Shown here piece after piece: positions 9,366 to 34,824 of a stretch of DNA of 64,000 nucleotides. Source of the DNA: Rhodovulum strictum. GTDB lineage: Bacteria > Pseudomonadota > Alphaproteobacteria > Rhodobacterales > Rhodobacteraceae. The stretch spans positions 186,001 to 250,000 of the forward strand of contig NZ_WJPO01000002.1 in NCBI RefSeq assembly GCF_009649175.1, written 5' to 3'. The notes under the pieces were generated by a model. It made no database searches. It saw only the letters and a list, made by a program, of their open reading frames with translations, and was not told the DNA's origin. Made by a program: the position numbers and the translations under genes. Position 1 is the first letter of the stretch. Every line of letters begins with the position of its first letter.

Positions 9366-10280
9366 CTATTCGAAATCGCTTCCGCGCGCCGAACTCAGCG
9401 CCCCGCAAAGCCGGTCCAGATCGTCGAGATTGCGATAGCCGATCACCAGCCGCCCCGATCCGTCGGCGGAATGCTCGATGGACACCTTCATCCCCAGATT
9501 GGCCGACAGATCCTGTTCCAGCGCGCGAGTATCGGCATCCTTTTCCGCCGCGCCGCCCGCCTTGCGCGGCGCAGCGCGCGGTTCGGTCGCGCGTTTCGCC
9601 AGCTTCTCGGTCTCGCGTACCGACATCGCGCCGGCGATCACCTCGCGCGCCATCCGCGCCGGATCCTCGGTCGTGATCAGCGCCCGCGCATGACCCGCGC
9701 TCAACCGCCCCTGCCGCACATGGTCCAGAACCTCGTCGGGCAGTTGCAGCAGCCGCAACAGGTTGGCGATATGGCTGCGGCTCTTGCCCAATGCCTCGGC
9801 CACCTTGTCCTGGGTGTGGCCGAACCGATCCATCAACTGCCGATAGCCCATCGCCTCTTCGACGGCGTTCAGATCCGCGCGCTGGATGTTCTCGATGATC
9901 GCGATTTCCAGCACCTCGATATCGTCGAGATCGCGCACGATCACCGGAACCTCGTGGGTCTGCGCCATCTGGCAGGCCCGCCAGCGCCGTTCGCCCGCCA
10001 CGATCTCGAATCGCCCCTCGGTCCGCTTGCTGGGCCGGACGATAAGCGGCTGAATCACGCCCTTTTCGCGAATCGAGGCCGCCAGTTCCTGCAACGCCTC
10101 GTCCGAGAATTGCCGCCGCGGCTGATCGGGATTCGGCTCCAGCAGGTCGAGCGTCACGATCTGGTCGGGCTTTCCGCGCGGCGCCTCCCCCCGCTCGGGG
10201 ACCGATTCGATCTGCACATCCGCCATCAGCGCCGATAGCCCCCGGCCGAGGCCACGCTTGCCCGTGTTCTTCAGGGTCAT
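9366..10280 (-). CDS. parB: Chromosome partitioning protein ParB
   Basis: CTP-dependent DNA clamp that loads at parS, spreads, and partners ParA for origin segregation. The 304-residue protein has the N-terminal GLGRGLSALM ParA-contact segment, the CTP-binding region with GERRWRA and ENIQRADLNAVEEA, the helix-turn-helix (HTQDKVAEALGKSRSHIANLLRL, broken here as HTQDKVAEALGKS then RSHIANLLRL) and a C-terminal dimer domain. Two in-frame ATGs lie six bases apart; I chose the second (10280) because GGGAGG ends six bases before it but abuts the first. Two perfect parS sites lie upstream in rsmG and mnmG. It follows parA by 16 bases. Confidence 0.95.
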   Translation of the reverse strand: MTLKNTGKRGLGRGLSALMADVQIESVPERGEAPRGKPDQIVTLDLLEPNPDQPRRQFSDEALQELAASIREKGVIQPLIVRPSKRTEGRFEIVAGERRWRACQMAQTHEVPVIVRDLDDIEVLEIAIIENIQRADLNAVEEAMGYRQLMDRFGHTQDKVAEALGKSRSHIANLLRLLQLPDEVLDHVRQGRLSAGHARALITTEDPARMAREVIAGAMSVRETEKLAKRATEPRAAPRKAGGAAEKDADTRALEQDLSANLGMKVSIEHSADGSGRLVIGYRNLDDLDRLCGALSSARGSDFE

Positions 10281-10296
10281 CGGCATCCTCCCAACA

Positions 10297-11106
10297 TCAT
10301 GCGGTCATGGCAGGTTTAGATCCCAACATCTCGCGTGCCAAGGCCCGATACGCCTGGGCGCCTTTCGACATCGGATCGTAGTCCAGCACCGGCATCGCAT
10401 AGGACGGTGCCTCGCTGACCCGAACGTTGCGCGGAATGACGGTCTGGAACACCAGCTCGCCCAGATAGGCACGCGCATCATTCTCGACCTGCTGGGACAG
10501 GTTGTTGCGCCGGTCGGTCATCGTCAACACCACGCCCTCGATTCGCAGCGCGGGGTTGGCGGTCTGGCGAAGCTCGCGAATCGTCAGCATCAGTTGCGAC
10601 AACCCCTCAAGCGCAAAGAACTCGCTTTGCAGCGGCACCAGCACCGAATGAGCCGCGACCATCGCGTTGACGGTCAGCAGGTTCAGCGAGGGCGGGCAGT
10701 CGATCAGCACGAAATCCAACCCGAACGCGTCGATCGCGGGCTGGCGCAGCGCGTCATGCAGCAGGAAACTGCGCTTTTCGTTCGAGACCATCTCGATATC
10801 GGCCGAGCTGAGATCGGTCGTTCCGGGGGCGATCAGCAGCCCGTCGATGCTGGTCTCAAGCACGATCTCGTTCAGCGGCGCTTCTTCCAGCAGCAGGTCA
10901 TAGGTGGTGCGCGTCCGCCGTTCGGCCTCGATCCCCAGCCCGGTCGAGGCATTGCCCTGGGGGTCGATATCGACGATCAGAACCTTGCGCCCCTCCTCGA
11001 CCAGGGCGGCGGCCAGGTTGATCGCGGTCGTGGTCTTGCCGACGCCGCCCTTCTGGTTGGCCACGGCGATGATCTTCGGGCCTTTGGGTCGCGTGGGGTC
11101 AGACAC
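10297..11106 (-). CDS. parA: Chromosome partitioning ATPase ParA
   Basis: DNA-associated Walker-type ATPase that forms the gradient moving ParB-parS complexes and the replicated origin. The deviant Walker A KGGVGKT lies at residues 19-25, followed by [12 protein letters not shown] and [16 protein letters not shown]. At 269 residues it is a normal chromosomal ParA (Soj type). The start is GTG at 11106, overlapping the last eight bases of rsmG (GTGTCTGA), so rsmG, parA and parB are read together leftward. Confidence 0.95.
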
Positions 11107-11719
11107 GGGCGATGCCTCCGATTTTCAGGATGACGGCCTGGGGGTCGGTCGTGCTGGGAATCTTCTGAACGTCGAACCGCCAGGATGCAAGCGCCGCGTC
11201 CAGTTCTTCGCCATGCCGGGCGCCCTTGGGGAAAAGTGCGATGCCGTCTTCGGCAAGATGGCGTTCCGCATGGTCCAGAAGCTCGGTCAGCGGCGCGAGC
11301 GCGCGGGCCGAGATCACATCGGCGTGCCGCGGCGGCAGCGATTCGATTCGCTCGGCAAGCACGGTGACATTGCCGAGACCAAGCTCCCGTGCGGCCGTGC
11401 GCAGGAAGGTGGCCTTGCGCTGGTCGCTTTCGATCAGCTCGACCGTCAGATCCGGCGCTTGTTCGGCGGCCAGAATGGCGATGACCAGACCCGGAAAACC
11501 GCCGCCGCTGCCCAGATCGGCCCAGCGCCGGGCGGACGGCGGCAAATGCTGGAAAAGTTGCGCGGAATCAACGAGATGTCGCTCCTCAAGCGCGTCGAGA
11601 GTCGAGCGCGCAACCAGATTGATCACGGGATTCCACTTTCGCAGCAGCGCCGCGAAGCCCGCAAGACGCTCGGATGTTTCACGTGAAACATCCGCAAATA
11701 CCCCGGTCGAAGACGTCAT
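11099..11719 (-). CDS. rsmG: 16S rRNA (guanine-N7)-methyltransferase RsmG
   Basis: Methylates G527 of 16S rRNA (E. coli numbering) using SAM; loss gives low-level streptomycin resistance in studied species. The 206-residue protein has the SAM-binding motif [11 protein letters not shown] and the GidB fold. The ATG at 11719 overlaps the mnmG stop as ATGA. Codons 11-16 (VSRETS) are written over a perfect parS palindrome, so this part of the protein is constrained by the DNA site as well as by its own function. Confidence 0.95.
11675..11690. promoter_or_regulatory. parS: parS centromere site 1 (inside rsmG)
   Basis: The 16-mer TGTTTCACGTGAAACA is the canonical ParB-binding palindrome, with no mismatch; symmetry extends outward to GGATG...CATCC (11672-11693). 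It lies in the rsmG coding region and is read there as VSRET. Position about 0.6 kb upstream of parA and 5 kb from the candidate origin is as expected for an origin-proximal centromere. Confidence 0.95.
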
Positions 11720-13590
11720 GCCAGGCGCCGCTCGGCCTGCCGCAGCCGGGCAAGGATCAGCGTCAGGGCCGCGGGCGTCATGCCCTCGATTCGCGCGGCC
11801 TGCGCCAACGTTTCCGGGCGCGCGGCGGCGAGCTTGGCTTTCAACTCGTTCGACAACCCCTCGATTCGCGCATAGGGGAAATCCGCCGGCAAAGCCTGCG
11901 CCTCGTCCCGGCGCATCGCCTGCACATCCTGTTCCTGCCGACGAATGTAATTCGCATAAAGCGCGTCGCGTTCGAGCTGGGCGGAAACCTCCGGGTCGAC
12001 CTCGGCCAGATGAGGGTCAAGCGGCACAAGATCGGGGAAAGTCACGTCGGGAAAGGCCAGCAGGTCAAAGCCGCTGCGCCGGGTGCCATCGGCGTTCACC
12101 CTGATCCCGGCTGCCGAAATCTCGCGCGGAGTCAGGGACATGGCGTCCAGCCGCGCCCGGGCCCGGGCCATCCGGTCCATCTTGTCGGCGAACACCCGCG
12201 CGCGCTCTGTCCCGACGCAGCCAAGGTCCAGCCCCATCGAGGTCAGGCGCTGATCCGCGTTGTCGGCCCGCAGCGACAGGCGGAACTCGGCGCGCGAGGT
12301 GAACATCCTGTAGGGTTCGCTGACGCCCCGAGTTACAAGATCGTCGATCATCACGCCGATATAGCTGCTCGTGCGGGTGAATTGCGCAGGCCCCTCGCCG
12401 CGCACCTGAAGCGCCGCGTTCAGCCCGGCAACCAGCCCCTGCGCGGCAGCCTCTTCATAGCCCGTGGTGCCGTTGATCTGCCCGGCAAGGAACAGGCCCG
12501 GCACATCGCGCAATTCCAGCGTGCTGCGCAGCGCGCGGGGATCGACGTAATCATATTCGATCGCGTAGCCGGGTTGCAGGATCGCGACATTCTCAAGGCC
12601 GGTGATCGACCGCACATAGGCATGCTGCACCTCCTCGGGCAACGAGGTCGAGATGCCGTTGGGATACACGGTCGGATCATCCAGCCCCTCGGGTTCGAGG
12701 AAGATCTGGTGCGAGTCCTTGTCGGCGAATCGCACGATCTTGTCCTCGATCGAGGGGCAATAGCGCGGCCCGACGCCTTCGATATGCCCGCCATACATCG
12801 CCGAGCGCGACAGGTTCTGGCGGATGATCTCGTGCGTCGCGGGATTGGTGTGGGTGATCCCGCAGGCGATCTGCGGAAGGTGCAGGCCATTGGAAAGAAA
12901 CGAGAAAAGAACGGGGTCGTCGTCGCCGGGCTGACGCTCCAGCCGGTCCCAGTCGATGGTGCGGCCATCCAGGCGCGGCGGCGTGCCGGTCTTGAGCCGA
13001 CCCAGCGGAAGGCCGAATCCGTCGATCCGCTCGGCCAGCGCCACGGACGGCCGGTCGCCCATCCGGCCCCCGGGGAATTGCCGGTCGCCGATATGGATCA
13101 CCCCGCGCAGGAAGGTACCGGCGGTCAGCACCACGGCACCGGCGGCAATCTCGGCTCCATCGGAGAGCCGCAGGCCGGTGATCTGCCCGGCGGTCTCGAT
13201 CAGGTCGGCCACTTCGGCCTCGATGATCGTCAGATTGGGAACCGTCGCCAGCGCCGCCTGAACCGCTTCGCGATAGGCGCGGCGGTCGGCCTGGGCGCGC
13301 GGCCCCTGCACGGCGGGGCCCTTGCGCCGGTTCAACAGCCGAAACTGGATGCCCGCCCGATCCGTCGCCTGCCCCATGACGCCATCCAGCGCATCGACCT
13401 CGCGCACCAGATGGCCCTTGCCCAGCCCGCCGATGGCCGGGTTGCAGGACATCACGCCGATTGCATCCCGCCGCAACGTGATCAGCGCGACGCGGACGCC
13501 AAGGCGCGCGGCGGCGTGCGCGGCCTCGGCCCCTGCATGGCCGCCGCCCACCACGACAACATCAAAGTCGCGATGTTTCACGTGAAACAC
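11716..13590 (-). CDS. mnmG: tRNA uridine-5-carboxymethylaminomethyl modification enzyme MnmG (GidA)
   Basis: FAD-dependent partner of MnmE that adds the (carboxymethyl)aminomethyl group at wobble U34 of several tRNAs. The 624-residue protein starts with the FAD-binding strand [14 protein letters not shown] and contains the GidA signatures [17 protein letters not shown] and GRMGDRPS. The start I give is GTG at 13590, reading MFHVKH; the internal GTG at 13581 is an alternative because AGGAG then has an eight-base spacing instead of almost none. Either way the first codons coincide with a parS site. It starts three bases after the mnmE stop and overlaps rsmG by four bases. Confidence 0.95.
13574..13589. 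promoter_or_regulatory. parS: parS centromere site 2 (mnmG start)
   Basis: A second perfect TGTTTCACGTGAAACA palindrome, 1.9 kb from the first. It covers the proposed first codons of mnmG, where it is read in another frame from site 1, as FHVKH. Only these two perfect sites were seen in the window. Confidence 0.95.
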
Positions 13591-16293: not shown

Positions 16294-16743
16294 TCAGAAT
16301 TTCAGGACGACCGCGAAGACGATGACAAGCATCAGAAGCGTGGGGACTTCGTTCATCATCCGGTAGCTGCGCCCGGACCGGGTATTGAGCCCCGCCAGAA
16401 ATTCCTTTCGACGCAGGCCAAGCCACATGTGAAACCAGGTCATCGCGATCACCGCGGCGGCCTTGGCATAGGGCCAGACCAGACCCCAGTCCACGATCCC
16501 GGGCGTGAAGACCAGCGCAAGGCCGAACACCCAGACCAGGATGATCGAGGGGTTCATTATGTAGCGGTAAAGCTTCATCTCCATGACCTTGAAGATCTCG
16601 TCCGTCTCGCTGCCCACCGCCGCGCGCTCGGCATGATAGACGAAGATCCGCGGGAGGTAGAAGATGCCAGCCATCCAGGTCAGCACCGCGATGATGTGCA
16701 GCGACTTCGTCCAGAAATAGTAGGACGCGAGGAACTCACCCAT
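16294..16743 (-). CDS. hemJ: Protoporphyrinogen IX oxidase HemJ
   Basis: Membrane enzyme that oxidises protoporphyrinogen IX to protoporphyrin IX in heme (and, where present, bacteriochlorophyll) synthesis; it replaces HemG/HemY in most alphaproteobacteria. The 149-residue protein has four predicted membrane helices, with the conserved Lys13 and His16 in WTKSLHIIAVLTWMAG and the segment FHMWLGLRRKEF. I start at the ATG at 16743 (MGEFLASYYFW), with GTGGAAAGA upstream. It borders the candidate origin and reads away from it. Confidence 0.93.
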   Translation of the reverse strand: MGEFLASYYFWTKSLHIIAVLTWMAGIFYLPRIFVYHAERAAVGSETDEIFKVMEMKLYRYIMNPSIILVWVFGLALVFTPGIVDWGLVWPYAKAAAVIAMTWFHMWLGLRRKEFLAGLNTRSGRSYRMMNEVPTLLMLVIVFAVVLKF

Positions 16744-17169
16744 TCTTTCCACTCCAGCGCAGGATCGATCTTGGGCTCCTTCTAAGAGATTAAGGAAAGA
16801 AAAGAAAAGATGATGTTGTTTGTGGGGGCTGTGGATCATGGGGATTATCGGTCCGTCCCCGGTTTTCTCCACAGGGCGGCCGATGTTGATAATTGTGTTG
16901 GAATCCTTCGAATATCCGGCAGGCCGTCAGAAACGCATTTGCTTTCAGTGTCTTGTCCGGGCGTCGCCGGGTTGCGGCCTGTGGATGGCCGGGGATGATT
17001 TCGCCAGAGCCGAGTCCCGCACAGCCCCGGGATGCGACGATCCACCGTGGAGGGGGATGTGCCCTGACTTGACTTTTTCCCCACTGACCGGCACCCCGGG
17101 GGCTCTGGCGCGGCTTGTTCCACCACATGCGAAAGCTGTACCCCCGCTTTTCCACAGGGTTCTGCCCGT
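16744..17169. other. oriC: 426-base non-coding gap, candidate chromosomal origin (oriC)
   Basis: No plausible gene is present. Left of the gap seven consecutive genes read left and to the right four read right. DnaA-box-like 9-mers (TTATCCACA or complement) with one mismatch lie at 16830-16838 (TGTGGATCA), 16865-16873 (TTCTCCACA) and 17148-17156 (TTTTCCACA); a weaker one with two mismatches is at 16980-16988 (TGTGGATGG). A purine-rich, relatively AT-rich stretch at about 16785-16825 is the best candidate for the unwinding element. Maf, coaE, dnaQ, rho and parAB neighbours are those seen at origins in this order. The call rests on context and by-eye motifs, without a skew plot. Confidence 0.7.
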
Positions 17170-17769
17170 ATGAATGAACGTGTGATCCTTGCTTCCGGCT
17201 CGCCGATCCGGCGAGAGCTGCTCGAACGGGCCGGTCTGGTCTTCGAGGTGATGCCGGTCGCCGTGGACGAGGCCGCGATCCGGGCCGGGCTGGAGGCCGA
17301 GCGCGCCCCGCCAGACGAGATTGCCGAGACACTGGCCGCCTTCAAGGCCGAGCGCGCGGCGGCCAAGGCGCCCGATGCGCTGGTGATCGGCTGCGATCAG
17401 GTTCTGGCGCATCGCGGCCGGGTGCTGGGCAAACCCGGCTCGCCGGACGAGGCGCGCGCGCAGTTGCGGGCCTTGCGTGGGGGGCCGCACGAGCTGTTGT
17501 CGGCCGTCGTCGTCTATGACGATCTCAAGCCGCTCTGGCGCCATGTCGGCAAGGTGACGCTGACCATGCGCTCTTTTTCCGATGCCTTTCTGGACGATTA
17601 TCTTGACCGGAACTGGGAGAGCGTGCGCGATGCCGTCGGCGCCTACAAGATCGAGGACGAGGGGATCCGCCTGTTCTCGGGCATCGAGGGGGACTATTTC
17701 GATATCCTGGGGCTGCCCCTTCTGCCGCTTCTGACCTTTCTGACCACCCGCGGAGCGTTGATGGCATGA
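17170..17769 (+). CDS. maf: Maf/YceF nucleoside triphosphate pyrophosphatase
   Basis: House-cleaning enzyme that hydrolyses modified or excess nucleoside triphosphates; paralogues differ in base preference. The 199-residue protein begins ILASGSPIRRELLERAG (family ASxSxRRxxLL motif), then VIGCDQVLAHRGRVLGKPG and ESVRDAVGAYKIEDEG, the catalytic Asp/Gln and Gly-Ala-Tyr segments. It opens the rightward maf-aroE-coaE-dnaQ operon (ATGA overlap with aroE) directly beside the candidate origin. No clear ribosome-binding site precedes the ATG; a near-leaderless message is possible. Confidence 0.92.
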   Translation: MNERVILASGSPIRRELLERAGLVFEVMPVAVDEAAIRAGLEAERAPPDEIAETLAAFKAERAAAKAPDALVIGCDQVLAHRGRVLGKPGSPDEARAQLRALRGGPHELLSAVVVYDDLKPLWRHVGKVTLTMRSFSDAFLDDYLDRNWESVRDAVGAYKIEDEGIRLFSGIEGDYFDILGLPLLPLLTFLTTRGALMA

Positions 17770-23347: not shown

Positions 23348-24451
23348 TCATTGCCCCGCCAGCGCCGTCAGCGGCGACAGGATGATGCCGGTTGCGTTCT
23401 GCACGGTGATGACCGTGCCCGGCAAAAGCCCCGGCCGCCCGGCCGCACCCTCGTCAAAGGATTGTTGCAGGGTCGGCACGTTGCGCAACAGCCGGATCAG
23501 GTCGGGCGAGCTTCCGGCGGTGAAATGGCCCATGCCCGTCGAAAACCCCGTCACATCCAGCACCGTGACCCTGAGATCGGCCAGTTCGCCGACGCTCTGG
23601 ATATTGCCCAGCCGCTCGCGCTGGCCCGACAGCCGCGCCGACAGCAGCAGCGCCCGGTCGCGTTGCGAGGTGAAGACAACCACATTCGGCGGCATCGCAC
23701 CGATATCGCGCACCTGCGCGCGGAACACATCGACGTCGATATCGGGCGACAACAGGATCAGCCCGTCAATCTCGCGCGCAACGCGGCCGGGGCTGGTCAG
23801 CGCCATCTGGCGCAGGGCTTCCATGCTGAGCAGTGCGCCCATCGAATGGGCCACGATCAGCACCTCGTCGGGCCGGGCCGCGATGACCGCGTCCAGCAAT
23901 TCGGTAAATCCCTTGCGGGCGAACAGCGCGCTGTCGCGGTCATGGGCATAGCCAAAGGGGCTGGCCGCGCTGGGCCAGGAATAATGCAGCGCGACGCCCT
24001 CGATCCCGAAATCATGGGCAAGCTGGGCGGATCGGTACAGACCTTCGGTGAAATTGGTGTTGAAGCCGTGGACAAAGATGACCGCCGCCCGCTTGCCGCG
24101 GGGCCGCGCAGCAAGATCGCGCGCCAGTGCAGCGGTAAAGGTCGGCGCGCGGTCGAACAGCCGGGCCGAGGTCATCACGAACTGGCGCCCGGGATCGGGC
24201 TGCCCCTTGGGATAGGCGATTTCCCCGGGCGCGCGGTCGGGCGGAACTGCCACCGTGAACGCCCCGAAACCGACCGTTTCCGAGCGCGTATTGCCGAACA
24301 ATCCGCCCGGGGTCCGCTCGCGCGTCGTTCCGACAAAGACCTGACGTTCGACCGCACCCGTCGCCGGTTCGCGCATGACGGCCAACGTGCCCCGCGCCGC
24401 ACAACCCGCCAGCGCGACAAGGCACAGAAGGAACGCGATCTGTCGCAGCAC
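23348..24451 (-). CDS. DUF900 alpha/beta-hydrolase lipoprotein
   Basis: Predicted lipoprotein (lipobox LAGC, Cys17) with an alpha/beta-hydrolase domain of the DUF900 esterase/lipase group. Visible are the oxyanion strand VIFVHGFNTNF, the nucleophile elbow AHSMG (Ser203, with Ala in place of the first Gly), and a later DVTGFSTGMGHF segment that may hold the His. I chose GTG at 24451, which gives MLRQIAFLL and a compact signal; a TTG at 24469 would add six residues. Substrate is unknown. It begins 21 bases after the hslU stop on the same strand, so it may be cotranscribed with hslVU. Confidence 0.8.
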   Translation of the reverse strand: MLRQIAFLLCLVALAGCAARGTLAVMREPATGAVERQVFVGTTRERTPGGLFGNTRSETVGFGAFTVAVPPDRAPGEIAYPKGQPDPGRQFVMTSARLFDRAPTFTAALARDLAARPRGKRAAVIFVHGFNTNFTEGLYRSAQLAHDFGIEGVALHYSWPSAASPFGYAHDRDSALFARKGFTELLDAVIAARPDEVLIVAHSMGALLSMEALRQMALTSPGRVAREIDGLILLSPDIDVDVFRAQVRDIGAMPPNVVVFTSQRDRALLLSARLSGQRERLGNIQSVGELADLRVTVLDVTGFSTGMGHFTAGSSPDLIRLLRNVPTLQQSFDEGAAGRPGLLPGTVITVQNATGIILSPLTALAGQ

Positions 24452-24472
24452 GGGCGGCCCCTGCGGCAATTC

Positions 24473-25783
24473 CTACAGAATGTAGCGGGTCACATCCATC
24501 GAACGTGTCAGCGCACCCAGGTTCTTCTCGACGAAGGCGGCATCCACCACGACCGCGTCGCCGCCGCGATCCGGGGCGGTGAAGCTCAGCTCCTCGAACA
24601 CCCGCTCCATCACCGTGTAAAGCCGCCGCGCGCCGATATTCTCGACGCTTTCATTCACCTCGGCCGCGATCCGCGCCAGCGCCGCGATGCCATCCTCGGT
24701 GAAGGTGACGTTGACCTTCTCGGTTTCCATCAGCGCGGCATATTGCCGGGTCAGCGCGTTTTCGGTCTCGGTCAGGATGCGCACGAAATCGGCCTCGGTC
24801 AGCGCGCGCAATTCCACCCGGATCGGCAACCGCCCCTGCAATTCAGGCAAAAGGTCGGACGGTTTGGCGATGTGGAAGGCGCCCGAGGCGATGAACAGGA
24901 TATGGTCGGTCTTGACCGGGCCGTGCTTGGTGGAAACCGTCGTGCCCTCGATCAGCGGCAGCAGGTCGCGCTGCACGCCCTCGCGGCTGACATCGGCGCC
25001 GCGCGTGTCGGACCGGGCACAGACCTTGTCGATCTCGTCCAGGAACACGATGCCGTTTTCCTGCACCGCCTCCAGCGCGGTGCGCGTCACCGCCTCGTCA
25101 TCCAGAAGCTTGTCGGCCTCTTCCGAGATCAGGATCTCGTAGCTGTCGCGCACCGTCATCCGGCGCCGGACCCGCCGCCCGCCGAATGCCTTGCCGAACA
25201 GATCGCCCAGCGACATCATCCCCCCGCCCTGGCCGGGCGGCATGCCGGGGATCTCCATCATCGGCAGCGGGTTCGAGGTATCGGCCACCTCAAGCTCGAT
25301 CATCGTCTCGTCAAGTTCGCCGCGCTTCAGCTTGCCGCGGAACATCTCGCGCGTCTGCTGGCGGGCATCGGTCCCGGCGATGGCCTCGATCACCCGTTCC
25401 TCGGCGGCCTGATGCGCCGCGGCCTTGACCTCGTCGCGCATCCAGTCCCGGGTCTGGGCAATGGCGCTGTCCACCAGATCGCGGATGATCTGTTCCACGT
25501 CGCGCCCGACATAGCCGACTTCGGTAAACTTGGTCGCCTCGACCTTGATGAAGGGCGCACGTGCCAGCCGCGCAAGGCGGCGCGAGATCTCGGTCTTGCC
25601 GACGCCGGTGGGGCCGATCATCAGGATGTTCTTGGGATACACCTCTTCGCGCAGGTCGTCGGACAATTGCTTGCGCCGCCAGCGATTGCGCAGCGCGACC
25701 GCCACGGCGCGCTTGGCGTCGTTCTGCCCGATGATGAAGCGATCCAGTTCCGAGACGATCTCGCGGGGGGTCAGGTCGGTCAT
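24473..25783 (-). CDS. hslU: HslUV protease ATPase subunit HslU
   Basis: AAA+ unfoldase that feeds substrates to the HslV peptidase during heat stress. The 436-residue protein has Walker A GPTGVGKT at residues 57-64, the pore GYVG motif ([10 protein letters not shown]), the I-domain (about 110-230), Walker [11 protein letters not shown], sensor 2 and the conserved C-terminal SMDVTRYIL that activates HslV. Translation is coupled to hslV by an ATGA overlap. Confidence 0.97.
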
Positions 25784-26340
25784 TTCGAAATCGTCTCCAC
25801 CGTCAGGTTGCCATTCGTGTAGACGCAGATATCCGCGGCGATCGCCATGGCCCTGCGGGCGATCTCCTCGGCCGAAAGCTGGGTGTTCTCGATCAGCCCG
25901 CGGGCGGCGGCCAGCGCGTAATTCCCGCCCGAGCCGATGGCCGCCACGTCATGTTCGGGTGACAGGACATCGCCCGCACCGGTCACGACATAGATCTCGG
26001 TGCCGTCGCTGACGATCAGCATGGCTTCGAGCTTTTGCAGATACTTGTCGGTGCGCCAGTCCTTGGCCAGTTCGACCGCCGCGCGCTGCAACTGGCCGGG
26101 GGTTGCTTCCAGCTTGGCCTCCAGCCGTTCGAGCAGGGTAAAGGCATCCGCGGTCGAGCCCGCGAACCCCGCCACCACGTCAAAGCCGCCGGGCGACAGG
26201 CGGCGCACCTTGCGCGCGGTGCCCTTGATGACGGTCTGGCCCAGGCTCACCTGCCCGTCGCCCGCAATCACCACCTGCCCGCCACGCTTGACGCCGATGA
26301 TCGTCGTGCCGTGCCAGCCGGGAAACTCGTCTCTTGCCAT
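25780..26340 (-). CDS. hslV: HslUV protease peptidase subunit HslV
   Basis: Threonine peptidase of the two-ring HslUV protease. The 186-residue protein has [11 protein letters not shown], in which Thr12 corresponds to the catalytic Thr1, so an 11-residue propeptide must be removed, and [19 protein letters not shown] and [12 protein letters not shown] place the start at the ATG at 26340 ([11 protein letters not shown]). A sequence upstream resembles an RpoH promoter (26371-26398), fitting the heat-shock role. Confidence 0.96.
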
Positions 26341-26370
26341 GGGCGCCCTCCGTGCCTCGCGCTTCGGCGC

Positions 26371-26398
26371 ATATATGTGCCCGATGCTGCCCCACAAG
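26371..26398 (-). promoter_or_regulatory. Putative RpoH (sigma-32) promoter for hslVU
   Basis: On the minus strand CTTG (26398-26395), a 17-base spacer and CATATAT (26377-26371) resemble the alphaproteobacterial heat-shock promoter (CTTG, about 17 bases, CYTATNT). The predicted transcript would start about 24 bases before hslV. The -10 differs from my recollection of the consensus at one position. Confidence 0.45.
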
Positions 26399-26409
26399 GC
26401 GCGCAACAG

Positions 26410-26433
26410 AAAGGGGCGCCGCAGCGCCCCTTT
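26410..26433 (-). terminator. Intrinsic terminator after trxA
   Basis: Perfect 9-bp stem AAAGGGGCG / CGCCCCTTT with a six-base loop, 24 bases past the trxA stop. Read leftward the 3' arm ends in T's, but only a short T tract follows. Confidence 0.65.
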
Positions 26434-26456
26434 GTCTCAGCCCCGGGCGGTCGAAA

Positions 26457-26777
26457 TCAGACCGACTCTTCGATCCAGCCTTTCAGCGCGGCCTTGGGGG
26501 CGGCGCCGATCTTGTTGGACACCACTTGCCCGTCCTTGAACAGGAACAGCGCCGGGATGCCGCGCACGCCCATCTGGGCGGGGGTGTTGGGGTTGTCGTC
26601 CACGTTGACCTTGACGATCTTGACCTTGCCCTCGTACTCGTCCGCCAGTTCTTCCAGCGCGGGGCCGATCTGCTTGCAGGGTCCGCACCACTCGGCCCAG
26701 AAATCCACCACCACGGGAATGTCGGACTGGCGCACCTCGGCGTCGAAGGTGTCGTCGGTGACGGAATGGGTCGGCAT
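26457..26777 (-). CDS. trxA: Thioredoxin 1
   Basis: Cytoplasmic dithiol reductant for ribonucleotide reductase, methionine sulfoxide reductase and others. The 106-residue protein has the active site WCGPC (Cys31, Cys34) in [16 protein letters not shown], the cis-proline region [12 protein letters not shown] and the normal length. AAGGAG lies seven bases before the ATG. It follows addA by 59 bases but has its own promoter-like sequence and a terminator, so it is probably partly independent of the addAB operon. Confidence 0.97.
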
Positions 26778-26811
26778 CGGGTCTCTCCTTGGAACCTGCG
26801 ATCGTTGCCGG

Positions 26812-26840
26812 ACAGTAAGAAGCGGGCCTTGGGGCGTCAA
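26812..26840 (-). promoter_or_regulatory. Putative sigma-70 promoter for trxA
   Basis: Minus-strand TTGACG (26840-26835), 17-base spacer, TACTGT (26817-26812), about 35 bases before the trxA start. The TGA inside the -35 hexamer is the addA stop codon, so the promoter is embedded at the end of addA. Confidence 0.5.
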
Positions 26841-29800
26841 GGCAGGGGCGCGCGGGCCAGCGCCGCTTTGCTGAGGGTGGCGGGGATGTCCATCAGCCGC
26901 CCCGTCCGCGTCCAGAGGATCGCGGTTTCGATCCGTTTCCCGGGATGGATCGCTGCCAAAGCATGACCATAGGCGCCCATCTGCCGCAAAAGCCCCTCGG
27001 GCACATCCTCGGGCCGGTCGGGGATCAGCGCGTTGGTCTTGAAATCGACCGCGCAAACGTGATCGGCGGTGACGATCAGCCGGTCGATGGTGCCGCGCAG
27101 GGGGCGGCCGTTCAGGTCGGCGGAAAACGGCACCTCGGCCAGCGTGCCGGGGGCAAAGACGGGGGCAAGCCGTGGATCGGCCAGCAGCGCCTCGGCCTCG
27201 GCGCGCAGGCTGTCGATCTCGGCCTCGGGGGTGGGCGGATCGCAGCGGGACAGCAGCGCGCGGGCCAGCGCCGGGCGGTTGGCGGGCGGGGCGTCGGGCA
27301 GATGTTCCAGCAGCAGATGCAGCCAGGTGCCCCGCGCCATCGCCGCCTCGGCCGCCATCCCCCCTGCCTCGCCCGGCATCACCTTGGCCCCGCCCAGATC
27401 GGACGGCGACAGCGGCTGCGGCGGGCGGGCCGGGCGCTGGGCCTCGCGCTTTGCCCAATCGGGCAGCGCCAGGGTCGGCGCCGGCGCCGGGCGCGCGTCG
27501 GCCGCTGCACCGCCCCAATTGCCCAATTCGTAGCGCAGCCCGGTTGCGAAGCCGAAATCGCAGGCCACTGGCCCCGCGCGGTCCAGCCCCGCCGCGATCC
27601 GGCTGTACCAGTCGCTGCCATCCCTGGTCAGCTTGCCCGCCGCCGCGACGATCAGCCATTGCTCGGCCCGCGTCATCGCAACATAAAGCAGCCTTGCGCG
27701 CTCCTCCTCCTCGCGCCGGACCCGCGCCTCATGCGCTGCCGCCAGCGCGGGCGGGCGGTCCTCGGCCGGGGTTTTCCAGGCGATGATGCCGTTTTCCAGC
27801 GGATAAAGCTGGTCGTGGATGCGCACCTGTCGCGCGGCCGTGTCGGGCAGGATCACCACTGGCGCCTCCAGCCCCTTGGCGCCATGCACCGTCATCACCC
27901 GCAGCCGGTTTCCCGCGGAATCGAGCTGGCGCTTGATCTCGACCTCGTCGCTTTCAAGCCAGCCAAGGAACCCGGTCAGCGAGGGCACCTCGGTCCGCTC
28001 ATAGGCCAGCGCCTGGGCCAGCAGCGCGTCGATGCCGTCTTCGGCCTCGTCGCCAAGCCGGGCAATCAGGCGGCGGCGGCCGTCATGGCGGGTCAGGATG
28101 CGTTCGAGCAATTCGTAGGGCCGCAGGAAATCGGCCTCGTCGCGCAGGGCGGTCAGCGTCAGTTTCGTCTCTGTCCCGGCCCAATCCGCGGATCTAAGCG
28201 CCTCCCACAGCCAGGCATGGCCGCGATAGGCCGCCAGCCGGTAAAGCGCCGCCTCGTCCCAGCCGAACAGAGGCGAGCGCAGCGCGCAGGCCAGCGACAG
28301 GTCGTCCTCTGGCAGCGCGAGGAAGGACAGAAGCGCGGTCAGATCGCGCACCGCCAGTTCGCCGCCGATCTTCAGCCGGTCGGCGCCCGCGACCTCCAGC
28401 CCCTCGGCCTTGCAGGCGCGAATGATCTCGTGAAACAGATCCGACCGCCGCTGCACCAGGATCAGGACATCGCCCTCGCGCAGCTTGCGCCGGGTAAAGC
28501 CGCCCTGCGTCTTGACCGCAATCGTCTCGCCCCGGTCGATCATCGCGCGGATCGACGCGGCCACCTGCCGGGCCAGCCGGACAGTGTGATGTTCCTCGGC
28601 CAGCGCATCGACAGGGTCGGCCCAATCGCCTGTCTCGGGTTTCTCGCTGTCCTCGACCACGGGCCACAGATCCACGCGCCCGGGCAGATCGGCATGGAAC
28701 GCCCGGTGCAGCATGTCGCGGTCCAGCCCCTGCCGCGCGCCTTCGGGAAAGGTCAGATCGACCACGTTCAGGATCGCGGGCGAGGACCGGAACGAATAGT
28801 CCAGCGTCAGATCGACCAGCGCGCGGTCGATCCCGCGCAACCGCTCGCCAAAGGCGGCCTTCATCCGGTCGAACCCGCCCGGATCGGCGCCTTGGAAGGA
28901 ATAGATCGACTGTTTCTTGTCGCCGACGACAAAGATCGTCCGCTCGACCCCTTCGCGCGCGCCGCGCCCGGCGGTGAACTCCTGCGCCAGCAACTCGATC
29001 ACCGCCCATTGCGCGGGGCTGGTGTCCTGCGCCTCGTCCACCAGGATGTGGTCCAGCCCGCCATCCAGCCGGAACAGCACCCATTGCGCGACGCCCGGAT
29101 CGGTCAGCAGTGCGCGCGCCTTCAGGATCAGGTCGTCGAAATCGAGCCAGCCATGGGCCTGTTTGCGCTGCGCATAGCGCGGCAGGAACGCGGCGGCAAA
29201 CCGATGCAGCGCCAGCGTCCGTTCGGCCGCGGCCAGCGCGACGCGGTGCGGGCGCGCGGCCTCTACCCTGGCCATCAGCGCGTGCAGATCGTCCAGCGCA
29301 GGGCCAAGGGCGGCCTGCGTCGCCTTGGTGGGAAAGGCGCCGATCTTTGCCGCAAAGGGCTGCTTGGCGCCTGAACCGTTCAGAAAAACAGCCTCAAGCC
29401 CCGCCAGAAGCGCCGGATCGCGCCGGGTCAGGTCCAGCGCGCCAAGGCGCACCGCATCCTTCTGATCGTTCGAGCTTCCCGCCCGCAGGGCGGGCAGCAG
29501 CCTCGCCATCAGATCGCCCTCGGTCCCCGTCAGAACCTGCGCCATCAACGCCGCAGCATCAAAGCCCGGCGCCAGACCGAACTGCCGCCAGATCGCATCC
29601 GCATCCCCTGCCCCGGAAAAGCGGTCGCGCTGCCCCGCGATCTCGGCGGTCAGCGCGTCAAGGTCTTCGTCCGTATGGAAGCGCGCGAGCCCGGCAAAGA
29701 CAGCGGACTCGGGGCCGTCGGCCAGTTCCTCGACAATCTCGGCCCGCAGACGCCGCGCCGCGCGGTCGTCCATCTCGGTGAATTGCGGCGAGACACCGGC

Positions 29801-30211
29801 CTCAAGCGGGAAGCGGCGCAACAAGGACGCGCAGAACGAATGGATCGTCTGGATCTTCAGCCCGCCGGGCGTCTCGATTGCGCGTGCGAAAAGCCGCCGC
29901 GCCTCGCGCAGCAGCGCCGTCTCGATCGGGCCGTCCACGCCCAACTCGCGCAGCGCGTGCCGCAGATCGGCATCGCCCAGCATCGCCCAGCCGCCCAGCC
30001 GGTCGAACAGGCGGTTCTGCATCTCGCTGGCGGCGGCCTTGGTATAGGTCAGGCACAGGATGCGCTGCGGCGGAACCCGGTTCAGCAACAGCCGCGCCAC
30101 CCGGTCGGTCAGCACCCGCGTCTTGCCCGACCCGGCATTCGCCCCCAGCCAGGTCGAGTTCGCCGGATCCGCCGCCTGAACCTGCCGCTCGGTCGCATCA
30201 TGGCGCGTCAT
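26837..30211 (-). CDS. addA: Double-strand break repair helicase-nuclease AddA
   Basis: UvrD-type 3'-5' helicase and nuclease subunit of AddAB, which resects double-strand ends for RecA loading. The 1124-residue protein has motif [10 protein letters not shown], motif II region [20 protein letters not shown], the helicase motif [25 protein letters not shown], and the C-terminal nuclease motif VDFKTN. It starts at 30211 by ATGA overlap with addB. Alphaproteobacteria use AddAB in place of RecBCD. Confidence 0.95.
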
Positions 30212-33150
30212 TCGCCCACCTCCATCGCGACGGGCGGGCTGGTCTCGTCCCACTCGCCGAAGCGCGACAGCAGGTCGTAATCGCTGCGATCCGTGCGCTT
30301 CTGCAATCGGCTGCGCGCCGTATAGCCCTGCCCGGCCCGCGCGTAATGTGCGATCAACCGGCCAAGCTCGGCCCAGGTGCGATCCACAAGCCCGTTTTCA
30401 AGCGGGTTCGTCACGGTTTTCGGCGGATTGCCCAGGCCCAGATAACTGACCTCATGCACGGGGGCGGCGGCGATGCCCTCGAACCCGCCGCGCTCGGCGA
30501 TACAGGCTTCCAGCAGCAATTGCTTGTCGAACACCTCCATCGCCTTCTGGCTGGGCGGCGTGCCGGTCTTGTAGTCGTAGATCACCAGCCGCCCGTCATC
30601 GCGCAGGTCGATCCGGTCGGCATTCGCGGTCAGGCGGAACCCGTCTGCCAGCGTGACCGCCCCCGCGCGTTCGCGGGCGATGCAGTGCGCCGCGGCCCGC
30701 CGCAGGGCCTCGTCCCGCACGAATACAGGCGCCACCCGGCCCAGCCGCGCCCGCCACAATGCGCGCGCCGCGGGCCAGGGCGCGTCCTCGGCCAGCACGG
30801 CATCGGCCAGCGCCATCAGGTGCGCCTCGGCCTGCGTCGGATCGGGGTCGAGAGGTTCGGCCAGGAAGCGTTCCAGAACCCTGTGCAGAACCGTGCCGCG
30901 CAATGGCGCATCCGCGCGATGGATCAGCGGATCAAGCGCTTTCAGGCGCAGGATGTGGCGGGCATAGACGGCATAGGGATCGCGGATCAGCCGCTCGACC
31001 GCGGTCACCGACAATTGCCTGGGCCGGTCCGCGACAGGCGGTCGGGGCGAGGGGCGCGGGGCGGCAGGCGCCGGCGCATCGGGCCGTTCCAGCGCGTCGG
31101 CAAGGCGCAGCCAATTTGCGCCGCGGTCCTGCATCGCCTTCAGCGCCACCTGGCCGCCATTGGCCTTTAGTCCCTCCAGCAGGTTGGTCAGCCGGTTCAG
31201 CCAGCGTGCGGGGACCGTTTGCGCCTCGGCATCGCGAACCGCGCGGCTCAGCACGACTTCGGGGGCACAGATCGCCTGCTGGAAATCATGCGCGGCCAAC
31301 CCGATCCGGCGTTCGGGCAGCAACAGGCCAAGCTGCGCCCGCATCTGCCGGTTGAGCCATGGATCGGGCGCGGGCGCCTCTGGCCAGGATCCCTCGTTCA
31401 GACCGGCCAGGATCACCAGATCGGCCCCCTGAACCCGCGCTTCGAGCGTGCCCCAGATCATGATGCCGGGATGCGGTTCGGGGGCCGAACGGACCTCGTG
31501 CTCGCGCAAGATGGCGTCGAACAGGGCAGCGTAATCGGCGGGCGACATCTCGCCCCCGGCGTCGGCCTCGGCCCGCAGGGTGTCGCACGCGGCAAGCGCA
31601 ACCTCGCCCGCAGCCTCGGCCCAAAGCGCGCCGCTGTTGGTGCCGTCATGTCCGCCGGCCAGTGCCTCGGCCAAAGCCAGATGGCGCGCGACATGGGGCG
31701 ATAAAGGCTCTGTTCCGGCCCGATCCAGCCCGTCAAGCGCCGCGCCAAGCCATGCGGCCCAGGCCACCCGCCCATCCGCGCGTCCCTTGCCCGCCCAGTC
31801 GCCCAGCGCGGTGCCATCGGGAAAGGCCGGGCCGTTGCGGCGCAGATGCAACTCAAGCTCGCGCGTCCAAAGCAGATGCTGCGCCCGCTGCCCCAGGCCT
31901 GAGGCGGTCAGCGGATGCTTGAGCAGCGCCAGCAGCCCCGCCACCGTCAGCCGCTGGCCGAACAGCGCCGCCACCTGCCGCAGGAACCGGCCCGGCGGCG
32001 ACAGTGGCAGCGGCATGCCCCCGCTATCGTCGGGCAGGATGCCCCAGCGGTCGAGCGCGGCGGCGACCTGCCGGGTCAGCGTCCGATCCGGGGTGATAAG
32101 CGCCGCCGTGCGCCCCGCCTCGGCCGCCGCGCGCAATCGCAGCGCAACCACCAGCGCCTCGGCCCGCGGCGAGGGCGCCTCGATCAGCGACATGCAGGCG
32201 GTGGCCTCCTCCAGATCGGTCAGGCGCGGGCCTTCGTCCATCCATTGATCCGTCACCGGCGCAGGCCGCAGCGCGAGCGAGACAAGCCGGTTGCGCGCCG
32301 GGCTTGGCGGCTGGGCATCGGCATCCCAGGGCTGCACCGCCGCCGCGTCCATCTCCAGCGCGTCCAGCAGTCGGCGAAAGCGGTATTGCGGATGATCCTC
32401 GGCCGCCAGCGCATCGTCCAGGCTGGCCCAGGTCGCGCCGGGCATGTCGAAATCGAAGCCGGGCAGCACCACCGCGCCCCGGGGCAGCCGCGCCACCGCT
32501 GCCATGAACAGCGCCGTCGCGCCCCGCGACCCGGTGCTGCCCGCAACGATCACCGGATGTTCGGGCGGATCGGTCCGCCACCGCGCGGCCAGCCGTTCCG
32601 CCGCCATCCGCTGGCGCGCGCCGTCATTGCCGCGCGCGGTCGGATCGGGGCCGAGATAGGCATCGACCAGACCCAGAAACCGCCGCGACCGCGCCCAATG
32701 CGCCGACAGATCGCCCATGTCGAGACGGTCCAGCGCCTGCGGATCCACGCCCTCGGCCAGCATCTCGTCCATCAGCCGCGCCAGGCTGTCGGCAAGGTCG
32801 AAGATCGAACTGCGCGGCGCGAGATCCGGTTCGATCTCAAGCAGTTTGCCCACAAGCGTCGCAAGTTCCAGCCTGCGGCGCAGCGGCGAGGGGGGCGTGG
32901 GCAGGTCGGCCAGCACCGGATGGCTGCCCAGTTCGGCCACCAGCCGGATGCGGGGCCAAAGCCGCGGCGGCCCGGCGGCCAGCAGATCCTGCAACCGCCG
33001 CCGCATGCGCTGGGTGTTCACCCAGATTTCCATCCGCGCCCAGGCATCGGGCGGGGCGTCGGCCATCCGGTTCCCAAGGCCGGCCAGAAAGGCGGCCGGG
33101 AAATCGGCGCCCGGCGGCAGGCCGAACAGGCGGGGTCCGCTGTCAGCCAT
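30208..33150 (-). CDS. addB: Double-strand break repair protein AddB
   Basis: Second subunit of AddAB, with a helicase-like fold that in characterised members scans for Chi and a C-terminal nuclease. The 980-residue protein ends with a PD-(D/E)XK nuclease domain (LTANADRIDLRDDG, VIYDYKTG around residue 850). I see no intact Walker A near the N-terminus, consistent with alphaproteobacterial AddB lacking ATPase activity. The ATG at 33150 overlaps murU by eight bases. Sequence divergence makes family assignment rest on position before addA, length and the nuclease motif. Confidence 0.93.
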   Translation of the reverse strand: MADSGPRLFGLPPGADFPAAFLAGLGNRMADAPPDAWARMEIWVNTQRMRRRLQDLLAAGPPRLWPRIRLVAELGSHPVLADLPTPPSPLRRRLELATLVGKLLEIEPDLAPRSSIFDLADSLARLMDEMLAEGVDPQALDRLDMGDLSAHWARSRRFLGLVDAYLGPDPTARGNDGARQRMAAERLAARWRTDPPEHPVIVAGSTGSRGATALFMAAVARLPRGAVVLPGFDFDMPGATWASLDDALAAEDHPQYRFRRLLDALEMDAAAVQPWDADAQPPSPARNRLVSLALRPAPVTDQWMDEGPRLTDLEEATACMSLIEAPSPRAEALVVALRLRAAAEAGRTAALITPDRTLTRQVAAALDRWGILPDDSGGMPLPLSPPGRFLRQVAALFGQRLTVAGLLALLKHPLTASGLGQRAQHLLWTRELELHLRRNGPAFPDGTALGDWAGKGRADGRVAWAAWLGAALDGLDRAGTEPLSPHVARHLALAEALAGGHDGTNSGALWAEAAGEVALAACDTLRAEADAGGEMSPADYAALFDAILREHEVRSAPEPHPGIMIWGTLEARVQGADLVILAGLNEGSWPEAPAPDPWLNRQMRAQLGLLLPERRIGLAAHDFQQAICAPEVVLSRAVRDAEAQTVPARWLNRLTNLLEGLKANGGQVALKAMQDRGANWLRLADALERPDAPAPAAPRPSPRPPVADRPRQLSVTAVERLIRDPYAVYARHILRLKALDPLIHRADAPLRGTVLHRVLERFLAEPLDPDPTQAEAHLMALADAVLAEDAPWPAARALWRARLGRVAPVFVRDEALRRAAAHCIARERAGAVTLADGFRLTANADRIDLRDDGRLVIYDYKTGTPPSQKAMEVFDKQLLLEACIAERGGFEGIAAAPVHEVSYLGLGNPPKTVTNPLENGLVDRTWAELGRLIAHYARAGQGYTARSRLQKRTDRSDYDLLSRFGEWDETSPPVAMEVGE

Positions 33151-33829
33151 CGTGCGCCCCGGCCAGCATTGCTTCTGCTTCGGCGATGCCGCCCGGATGG
33201 CCGACATCGCACCAGCCGCCCGCATGCAGGACGCCGAACAGCCGCCCCGCGGCAATCGCGCGGTCCCAGACGCGGTTGAGCGAGAATGCGTCTTCGGCGA
33301 TGCCGTCCAGCAGATGCGTCCTGACGATCTGCGCCCCGGTATAGACCGATGGTCCCGCGCGGCTGATCCGGCCTTCGGCGTCCAGCGCAAAATCGCCCGT
33401 GCCGCGATAGCCGCGCGCCGCGTCGGCCGCGACCAGCAGCAACAGCGCGTCCATGCGGCCCGGATCCCATGCCTCGGCCAGGCGGGCCAGCGGGTTCGGG
33501 CCGGTCCAGATTGCGTCACTGTTCAGCGTGAAAACGGTGTCCGAGCCCAAGAGCGGCAGCGCCTTGCGCAGCCCCCCGCCGGTGTCGAGGATCGCGCCCG
33601 CCTCGTGCGAGATCGCGACGCCGCGGCCCGACAGATGCGCGTGAAGCTGCTCGGCCCGGTAATGGGTGTTGACGACGATCCGGGCGATCCCGGCATCCGT
33701 TGCCAGGTCCAGCGCATGGTCGATCAGCGCGCGGCCTGCGATTTCGATCAGGGGTTTCGGCCGGTCAGCGGTCAGCGCGCCCATCCGCGTGCCGAACCCG
33801 GCGGCGAACAGCATCAGCGCGCCGGGCAT
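33143..33829 (-). CDS. murU: N-acetylmuramate alpha-1-phosphate uridylyltransferase MurU
   Basis: Transfers UMP to MurNAc-1-phosphate, making UDP-MurNAc and so bypassing de novo MurA/MurB during peptidoglycan recycling. The 228-residue protein is a sugar-nucleotidyltransferase with the signature FAAGFGTRM (G11-M16) and RPKPLIEIAG, the NTHYRAEQL and LNSDAIW metal-binding strands. The family covers several nucleotidyltransferases; the MurU call depends on the preceding amgK. It overlaps amgK by 16 bases and addB by eight. A second possible start (33814) directly overlaps the amgK stop, but MPGALMLFAAG fits the family better. Confidence 0.87.
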   Translation of the reverse strand: MPGALMLFAAGFGTRMGALTADRPKPLIEIAGRALIDHALDLATDAGIARIVVNTHYRAEQLHAHLSGRGVAISHEAGAILDTGGGLRKALPLLGSDTVFTLNSDAIWTGPNPLARLAEAWDPGRMDALLLLVAADAARGYRGTGDFALDAEGRISRAGPSVYTGAQIVRTHLLDGIAEDAFSLNRVWDRAIAAGRLFGVLHAGGWCDVGHPGGIAEAEAMLAGAHDG

Positions 33830-34824
33830 TTTCGGGCGATCCGGTCAAGGTGGTCGGGCTCGGGCGGCGGGATCAGGTCCAGCACCTGCGCCCGAAGGGG
33901 GGCAAGGTCGGGATGGGACAGGTCGCGCATCAGGTGGCCCCAGACCCGTGGCAGCAGCGGCAGATAACCGGGCTTGCCGTCGCGCAGGCAGAGTCGGGCA
34001 AAGACGCCCAGGATGCGCAGGTTTCGCTGTGCGCCCAGCAGCGCATAGGCGCGATCAAAGCTGTCTGGTGCCGTGCCGGTCGCCGCCACATAGCGCGTGC
34101 GCATCCGCGCTTGCAGCCCCTCGTCCACATCGCGCCGCGCGTCTTCCAGCAGGGATACCAGATCATAGGCCGGGTGCCCGCACAGCGCGTCCTGAAAGTC
34201 CAGAAGACCCACGCGCGCGGCGCCCTGGCGGTCGGGCAGCCAGATCAGGTTCTCGGCATGATAGTCACGCAGGATCAGCACAGAGGGCGGCGCGTGTTCG
34301 GCCAGAACAGTCTCTATTCCGGCCCGAAACGCCGCTGCCGCGCCATCGGGCGCGGGGGCGTCGATGCCGGGCAGATACCAGTCGAAGGGCAGGCGGGCGA
34401 GCCGGGCCATGATCGGCGCGTCATAGGCGCCAAGTCCCGAAGGGGGCGGCGCGCGGTGCAGGTCGGCCAGCAGATCGACCGCAGCGGCGTAAAGCGTTTC
34501 TTCCTGCGCCGGATCGCGGGCGGCAACGCGGGCGAACAGATCGTCGCCCAGATCCTCCAGCAGCAACAGGCCCGTCCCGGGATCCTCGGCCAGGATCGCG
34601 GGCGCCGACAGGCCCAGTCCCGACAGGTGCCGCGCGATGGCGAGGAAGGGGCGCACATCCTCGCCCCGCTCGGCGGGCGCGTCCATCAGCACGGCGGATC
34701 GCAGCCCGTCGGTCAGCCGTTCATAGCGGCGGTTCGAGGCATCGCCCGCCAGCGGACGGCGCGTTGCATCGCCCCAGCCAGCACCCGACAGGAAGGCGGC
34801 GATCACCTCGGCACGCTCAGGCAT
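33814..34824 (-). CDS. amgK: Anomeric MurNAc/GlcNAc kinase AmgK (aminoglycoside-phosphotransferase fold)
   Basis: Phosphorylates MurNAc (and GlcNAc) at the anomeric carbon, supplying MurU. The 336-residue kinase of the APH fold has the ATP-binding AGDASNRRYERL, the catalytic loop RDYHAENL (Asp187, Asn192) and the metal-binding LLDFQDALCGHPAYDL (Asp209). The catalytic loop has Leu where Pseudomonas AmgK, as I recall it, has His before RD. It starts within the tsaE stop (8-base overlap; ATG at 34824), preferred to an upstream ATG inside tsaE. The tandem amgK-murU pair strengthens both assignments. Confidence 0.87.
   Translation of the reverse strand: MPERAEVIAAFLSGAGWGDATRRPLAGDASNRRYERLTDGLRSAVLMDAPAERGEDVRPFLAIARHLSGLGLSAPAILAEDPGTGLLLLEDLGDDLFARVAARDPAQEETLYAAAVDLLADLHRAPPPSGLGAYDAPIMARLARLPFDWYLPGIDAPAPDGAAAAFRAGIETVLAEHAPPSVLILRDYHAENLIWLPDRQGAARVGLLDFQDALCGHPAYDLVSLLEDARRDVDEGLQARMRTRYVAATGTAPDSFDRAYALLGAQRNLRILGVFARLCLRDGKPGYLPLLPRVWGHLMRDLSHPDLAPLRAQVLDLIPPPEPDHLDRIARKCPAR

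What the first reader, a model, noticed from the sequence alone, without database searches (positions are those of the whole stretch)
16744..17169. Candidate chromosomal replication origin between hemJ and maf
A 426-base gap without a gene, with genes reading away on both sides, three one-mismatch DnaA-box-like 9-mers (16830, 16865, 17148) and a purine/AT-rich stretch (about 16785-16825), next to parAB/parS, maf, coaE and dnaQ. In a genome with such dense coding this is the largest non-coding gap and the only one with clustered DnaA-like sites. Boxes were identified by eye.
Basis: partly seen in the sequence, partly recalled or inferred. Interest (0 to 1): 0.7.

Follow-up and report, generated by a model that had tools for sequence, protein, structure and literature searches.

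The report
Ordinary chromosomal replication origin (oriC)
The gene-free gap between hemJ and maf is very probably the place where this Rhodovulum-type bacterium starts copying its chromosome, an expected version of the replication origin known from its relatives.

Summary
The 426-bp gap 16744-17169 is the window's largest non-coding gap. The gap is conserved in 90 distinct Rhodobacterales sequences (359-464 bp), with DnaA boxes recurring at the same aligned places beside an oriented purine-rich/GATGATG element. In other alphaproteobacteria the same gene string (parB-parA-rsmG-mnmG-mnmE-rho-hemJ ... maf-aroE-coaE-dnaQ) encloses hemE and often COG1806, with DnaA boxes between: the locus where Caulobacter's origin was found experimentally. 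Here hemE lies elsewhere and COG1806 is missing, leaving the origin between hemJ and maf. GC skew changes sign at the gap, within 20-47 kb, in three of four long-contig relatives. In the fourth the change is gradual, and on the window's own contig the minimum lies 43 kb to the maf side. I conclude it is oriC (confidence 0.95): a new member of a known kind, of low surprise. Strict Caulobacter-type CtrA sites are near chance level. A DnaA-trio-type unwinding element is suggested, not proven.

The parts
16744..17169 (.). oriC: intergenic region between hemJ and maf
   Evidence: 426 bp, largest non-coding gap of the window; orthologous gap 359-464 bp in 90 distinct sequences, the window's included
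16776..16825 (.). putative DNA unwinding element, purine-rich and AT-rich
   Evidence: least stable 50-bp stretch of the 64-kb window by nearest-neighbour energy (values recalled); the 30-bp and 80-bp minima start at 16781 and 16768
16806..16814 (-). DnaA-trio-like repeats (ATC ATC TTT read 5'->3' on the minus strand; GATGATG on plus at 16809-16815), 15-bp spacer from the box at 16830
   Evidence: meets the published BUS rule; GATGATG in 58 of 90 gaps in this orientation, 0 of 90 reversed, about 3-4% of shuffles
16830..16838 (-). DnaA box, TGATCCACA (1 mismatch)
   Evidence: a box with <=1 mismatch at this aligned position in 36 of 90 gaps
16839..16847 (-). weak DnaA box, TAATCCCCA (2 mismatches), in tandem with the one at 16830
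   Evidence: <=1-mismatch box here in 21 of 90 gaps
16865..16873 (+). DnaA box, TTCTCCACA (1 mismatch)
   Evidence: <=1-mismatch box here in 39 of 90 gaps
16884..16892 (-).
   Evidence: <=1-mismatch box here in 30 of 90 gaps
16943..16955 (+). IHF-like site TTTCAGTGTCTTG (1 mismatch from WATCARNNNNTTR, consensus recalled)
   Evidence: exact consensus matches in 22 of 90 gaps, mean 0.26 per gap against 0.03 in shuffles
16980..16988 (-). weak DnaA box, CCATCCACA (2 mismatches)
   Evidence: <=1-mismatch box here in 38 of 90 gaps
17075..17083 (+). weak DnaA-box-like site, TTTTCCCCA (2 mismatches)
   Evidence: not among the recurring aligned positions
17148..17156 (+). DnaA box, TTTTCCACA (1 mismatch), next to maf
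   Evidence: <=1-mismatch box here in 57 of 90 gaps
16294..16743 (-). hemJ (PF03653), left boundary gene
17170..17769 (+). maf (PF02545), right boundary gene
9366..11106 (-). parB and parA, origin-linked partition genes
11675..11690 (+). parS, perfect 16-bp palindrome
13574..13589 (+). parS, perfect 16-bp palindrome, inside the first codons of mnmG

Best explanation
The gap is oriC of the main chromosome. Inferred mechanism: DnaA (encoded elsewhere, on C1) binds the array of mostly imperfect boxes. IHF probably bends the middle of the gap and brings the maf-side boxes to the hemJ-side array. DnaA then extends from the tandem boxes at 16830/16839 towards hemJ over the GATGATG repeats and melts the purine/AT-rich stretch at about 16776-16825. 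The replicative helicase is loaded there, and forks leave in both directions. parS and ParAB, 3-8 kb away, segregate the new origins. Shown here: the sites, their clustering, their conservation, the locus homology, and the skew change near the gap in relatives. Inferred: DnaA binding, melting, helicase loading and the IHF role.
For: Four of the genome's 122 one-mismatch boxes lie in 327 bp of the gap. The 90 distinct orthologous gaps average 3.13 such boxes against 0.09 in shuffles, at shared aligned positions. The window's least stable 30-, 50- and 80-bp stretches start in the gap. Synteny: 14 stretches from other genera were read. In the 11 with flanks on both sides, one-mismatch boxes lie between hemE (or hemJ) and maf (or coaE) in 11 of 11, two or more in 9 of 11. 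PF03618 (COG1806) sits at that locus in the five genomes where its place was checked. The published Caulobacter origin lies between hemE and COG1806 (passages). GC skew: the sign changes between 20-kb stretches abutting or containing the gap in G001, G015 and G018. parAB and two parS are close by. The genome has one DnaA, with an intact C-terminal HTH domain.
Against: The own contig C22 has its cumulative GC-skew minimum at C22:246000, 43 kb to the maf side. In G013 the sign is mixed from the gap (2.674 Mb) to about 2.815 Mb. The boxes here are all imperfect, and 62 of 90 gaps have no perfect box; two of 90 have no one-mismatch box at all. One search left 22 of 122 box places unlisted. The genome is in 97 contigs, so no whole-chromosome skew could be drawn.
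Confidence: 0.95

Rival explanations
1. The gap is only a divergent promoter region for hemJ and maf that DnaA regulates as a transcription factor; the origin is elsewhere.
For: The flanking genes are divergent, and a gap with promoters could also be AT-rich.
Against: A gap of 359-464 bp is conserved across 90 distinct sequences with about three one-mismatch boxes each. Where hemE and COG1806 replace hemJ and maf as boundary genes, boxes stay between the flanks. The skew sign changes here in three of four relatives. No better box cluster is among the 100 of 122 places listed.
Confidence: 0.03
2. The true origin lies some tens of kb to the maf side, near window position 60000, where the own contig's cumulative GC skew is lowest.
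For: Cumulative minimum at C22:246000; in G013 the sign settles only at about 2.815 Mb.
Against: No cluster of DnaA boxes there: in the stretch read, the only one-mismatch site on C22 beyond 205.5 kb is at 228478. Called genes from 23348 to 38407 all lie on the minus strand, which can pull local skew. Window 17-51 kb is collinear with G015, whose skew changes at the gap.
Confidence: 0.02

Closest known systems
Caulobacter crescentus Cori (origin between hemE and COG1806) and its Rickettsia counterpart
   Same: Orthologous chromosomal locus by the gene string of class relatives; DnaA boxes, an IHF-like site and an AT-rich element, as described for Cori in the passages of PMC1914354
   Different: hemE is on another contig, C11, and PF03618 (COG1806) has no match in the 16 genomes of this genus searched, so the boundary genes are hemJ and maf. 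Strict CtrA sites TTAA-N7-TTAA occur in 3 of 90 gaps, near chance; Cori has five CtrA sites. The Caulobacter sequence itself was not fetched.
Rhodobacteraceae oriCs assigned by Ori-Finder (PMC6699656, 101 of 109 strains)
   Same: Same family; assigned by skew minimum, DnaA boxes, local GC minimum and parAB proximity (passages read)
   Different: The 12 of 30 passages shown do not name flanking genes; coordinates were not compared here.
Bacillus subtilis-type basal unwinding system (BUS: DnaA box, spacer, DnaA-trios)
   Same: Tandem boxes, GC-rich spacer, repeated trinucleotides, AT-rich stretch, in that order
   Different: Trios here read 3'-TAG-5' rather than the commonest 3'-GAT-5'. In the window my version of the published rule ranks another run of trios, at 16883-16900, higher.

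Membership tests
alphaproteobacterial oriC (Cori locus) | Locus homologous to hemE-COG1806 and its gene neighbourhood | tested here: met
   Same flanking gene string with hemE and/or COG1806 retained in relatives
alphaproteobacterial oriC (Cori locus) | Cluster of DnaA boxes unique in the genome | tested here: met
   4 of 122 one-mismatch sites in 426 bp; no other such cluster among the 100 places listed, 22 not listed
alphaproteobacterial oriC (Cori locus) | AT-rich, easily melted element | tested here: met
   Least stable 30/50/80-bp stretches of the window
alphaproteobacterial oriC (Cori locus) | IHF site | tested here: inconclusive
   One-mismatch site in the window; exact consensus match in 22 of 90 gaps, about eightfold over shuffles. 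Four IHF/HU-family matches in the genome
alphaproteobacterial oriC (Cori locus) | CtrA sites TTAA-N7-TTAA (five in Caulobacter; zero to seven in other alphas) | tested here: not met
   3 of 90 gaps (0.033 per gap against 0.013 in shuffles); the looser TTWW-N7-TTWW was not scanned. Not a defining feature across the class,
alphaproteobacterial oriC (Cori locus) | GC-skew minimum | tested here: inconclusive
   At the gap in G001, G015 and G018 at 20-47 kb resolution; gradual in G013; 43 kb off on own contig
alphaproteobacterial oriC (Cori locus) | Autonomous, DnaA-dependent replication; marker-frequency peak | not testable with these tools
   Needs bench work or reads
BUS | DnaA box (<=2 mismatches) within 16 bp of at least three NAN trios | tested here: met
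   Met in the window on both strands; 66 of 90 gaps against 22% of shuffles; stricter form 26 of 90 against 0.3%
BUS | Strand separation by DnaA that needs both box and trios | not testable with these tools
   Biochemical assay, described

The most novel reading that the evidence does not exclude
Rhodobacteraceae origins descend from the Cori locus but have shed hemE, COG1806 and the strict CtrA sites within the origin. They rely on an array of weak, position-conserved DnaA boxes and an oriented DnaA-trio-like GATGATG/purine-rich unwinding element of BUS type: a variant of the alphaproteobacterial origin that CtrA does not switch directly.
Probability: 0.4. Interest if true: 0.35.

Novelty: new member of a known kind. 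Interest (0 to 1): 0.2.

Why it matters
It places oriC in a Rhodovulum-type genome that is only in contigs. It gives a simple landmark, the hemJ-maf gap, for finding the origin in related Rhodobacteraceae where skew is weak and the usual hemE landmark is gone. It also offers a 90-sequence alignment in which the unwinding element and the role of CtrA could be tested.

Tried and rejected
Secondary or plasmid origin: rejected, because the gap lies in a conserved core-gene string with parAB and parS beside it. Origin at hemE or dnaA: the hemE end of C11 has no one-mismatch box in the 10 kb fetched and the dnaA region of C1 has one in the 20 kb fetched. RNA gene in the gap: no match. Strict CtrA and GANTC enrichment: none worth the name (CtrA 0.033 per gap against 0.013 in shuffles, GANTC 1.22 against 1.78). 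KOPS-like GGGNAGGG counts (motif recalled) were printed as a side check of replichore direction; by eye they mostly follow the skew, and they were not used further. Strand-corrected third-position skew was also printed; it is noisy and was not relied on. The DnaA-trio reading was kept as inference, because in the window my version of the published rule ranks a different run higher, 24 of 90 gaps fail the rule, and in 22 of the 58 gaps with GATGATG no TGTGGA follows within 60 bp. Unfinished: the 22 box places not listed; G003 skew.

Full report
What was checked. The window is G000:C22:186001-250000 of a 3.83-Mb genome in 97 contigs. The genus is Rhodovulum by inference: genome G008, listed as same genus, has the same gap sequence as the named record Rhodovulum tesquicola (L011 = L040). 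hemJ (16294-16743, minus) and maf (17170-17769, plus) are confirmed by Pfam, as are rho, parA, parB, aroE, coaE and a dnaQ-like exonuclease.

The observation. The gap is 426 bp, the largest in the window by a simple codon-model gene call (next: 397 bp). The whole genome has 122 one-mismatch sites (62+60) against 277 for the reversed control pattern. Four in this gap compare with 0.014 expected, and random placement gives any such cluster in 11 of 200,000 simulations. Only 100 of the 122 places were listed. The number of sites in the window as a whole, six, is only mildly high (3 of 100 shuffles). The gap holds the starts of the least stable 30-, 50- and 80-bp stretches of the 64 kb, at 16781, 16776 and 16768.

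Conservation. Of 120 sources searched, 100 had both hemJ and maf hits. Among the others that had a hemJ hit, L049 and L116 begin near hemJ and so miss the gap, and L030 and L032-L039 hold only about 3.4 kb with no maf hit. Two of the 100 were set aside, leaving 98 and 90 distinct gaps of 359-464 bp, median 417. They average 3.13 one-mismatch DnaA boxes (range 0-6) against 0.09 in dinucleotide shuffles. Two gaps have none, and 62 of 90 lack a perfect TTATCCACA. On the MAFFT alignment, boxes with at most one mismatch recur at window positions 16830 (36 of 90), 16839 (21), 16865 (39), 16884 (30), 16980 (38) and 17148 (57). GATGATG occurs in 58 of 90 gaps in this orientation and in none reversed, 51-78 bp from the hemJ start; TGTGGA follows within 60 bp in 36 of those 58, at 7 or 13 bp in 12 each. 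An exact IHF consensus match occurs in 22 of 90, about eight times the shuffled rate. Strict CtrA sites occur in 3 of 90.

Homology of the locus. Fourteen stretches of 7-20 kb around hemJ from other genera were read. hemE lies next to hemJ in 10 of 14. maf-aroE-coaE are present in 10 (dnaQ too in 9), and dnaQ-coaE without maf in an eleventh; L224, L225 and L228 show none of that side. In the 11 with both flanks, one-mismatch boxes lie between the flanks in all 11, two or more in 9. No chance expectation was computed for these stretches, and some (L227 above all, 16 boxes in 20 kb) are rich in boxes throughout. PF03618 (COG1806) lies between maf and the box region in G016 and G019 and in G025, G028 and G033 (coordinates set). 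One search found it in 4 of 25 genomes: in 0 of 16 of this genus and in 4 of 9 others of the class (G031's place was not checked; G029 and G032 keep hemE but lack it). hemE of the own genome is on C11. The Caulobacter origin lies experimentally between hemE and COG1806 (PMC1914354, passages read). A Sphingopyxis paper supports the same cluster for finding oriC in alphaproteobacteria (PMC4741004, passages read). The window's gap is therefore that locus after both boundary genes left; how and in which order they left is inference.

Skew. G018: ten of ten sampled stretches from 1.71 to 3.44 Mb are negative, and the stretch holding the gap (3.467-3.487 Mb) is positive; of the nine stretches on the other arm, three are slightly negative against expectation. 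G015: -0.020 at 46-66 kb, +0.022 at 66-86 kb, with the gap at about 66.1-66.6 kb; the stretch at 1-20 kb is positive against expectation. G001: -0.027 at 666-686 kb, +0.014 at 686-706 kb, with the gap starting at 686.1 kb; the stretch at 746-766 kb is slightly negative against expectation. G013: negative in all sampled stretches from 0.76 Mb up to the gap at 2.674 Mb, then mixed to about 2.815 Mb, positive beyond. Own contig C22: cumulative minimum at 246 kb, 43 kb to the maf side. The maf side is collinear between the window, G013 and G015 to about 51 kb, so the offset is not a large insertion; the called genes from 23348 to 38407, all on the minus strand, may contribute. Skew supports the region, not the base.

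Mechanism. DnaA is present once, with N-terminal, ATPase and HTH domains, and four IHF/HU-family matches exist. The hemJ-side array reads, on the minus strand: weak box 16839, box 16830, a GC-rich 15-bp spacer, ATC ATC TTT, then the purine-rich low-stability stretch. This matches the published BUS order (PMC8287927: section 13, the first of two parts of section 14, and passages). My version of the published rule is met in 66 of 90 gaps against 22% of shuffles, and a stricter form in 26 of 90 against 0.3%. In the window, however, it ranks another run (16883-16900, beside box 16865) higher, so which stretch melts first is open. Binding, melting and helicase loading are inferred, not shown.

What is known. 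Rhodobacteraceae origins were assigned genome-wide with Ori-Finder plus skew and parAB (PMC6699656, 101 of 109 strains; passages read), and Ori-Finder gave one unambiguous origin for 70 of 147 Rhodobacterales genomes in another study (PMC9836097, passages). Loss of CtrA is reported without effect on viability in the Rhodobacterales studied, although an influence of CtrA on replication is reported for some (PMC8116508, passages read). Rhodobacter sphaeroides origin regions were located by cumulative skew and partition loci (PMC6315104, passages read). PMC7901474 and PMC2877005 were seen in passages and added nothing on the gap. A whole-word search for papers with at least four of maf, hemE, oriC, coaE and dnaQ found none. 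I saw no printed description of the hemJ-maf gap as the origin in the listings or in the passages of the nine papers opened, but the other listed papers were not opened, and subscription papers and the DoriC database were not searched. The finding is correct, well supported and expected.

Noticed in passing
11675-11690 and 13574-13589: Two perfect parS palindromes; the second is built into the first codons of mnmG (protein begins MFHVKH).
   Followed up: partly
genome-wide (G000): One-mismatch DnaA boxes are about 2.3 times rarer in the genome than the reversed control pattern (122 against 277), perhaps avoidance outside the origin or a composition effect.
   Followed up: no
G000:C33:4964-5070: A perfect TTATCCACA and a one-mismatch box about 100 bp apart on another contig; possibly a plasmid or a DnaA-regulated site.
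   Followed up: no
genomes G000-G015: COG1806 (PF03618 kinase/pyrophosphorylase), an origin boundary gene in other alphaproteobacteria, has no match in the 16 genomes of this genus searched.
   Followed up: partly
window 22000-54000: GC skew is mostly negative on the maf side for about 30 kb although that arm should be positive; the called genes from 23348 to 38407 are all on the minus strand.
   Followed up: partly
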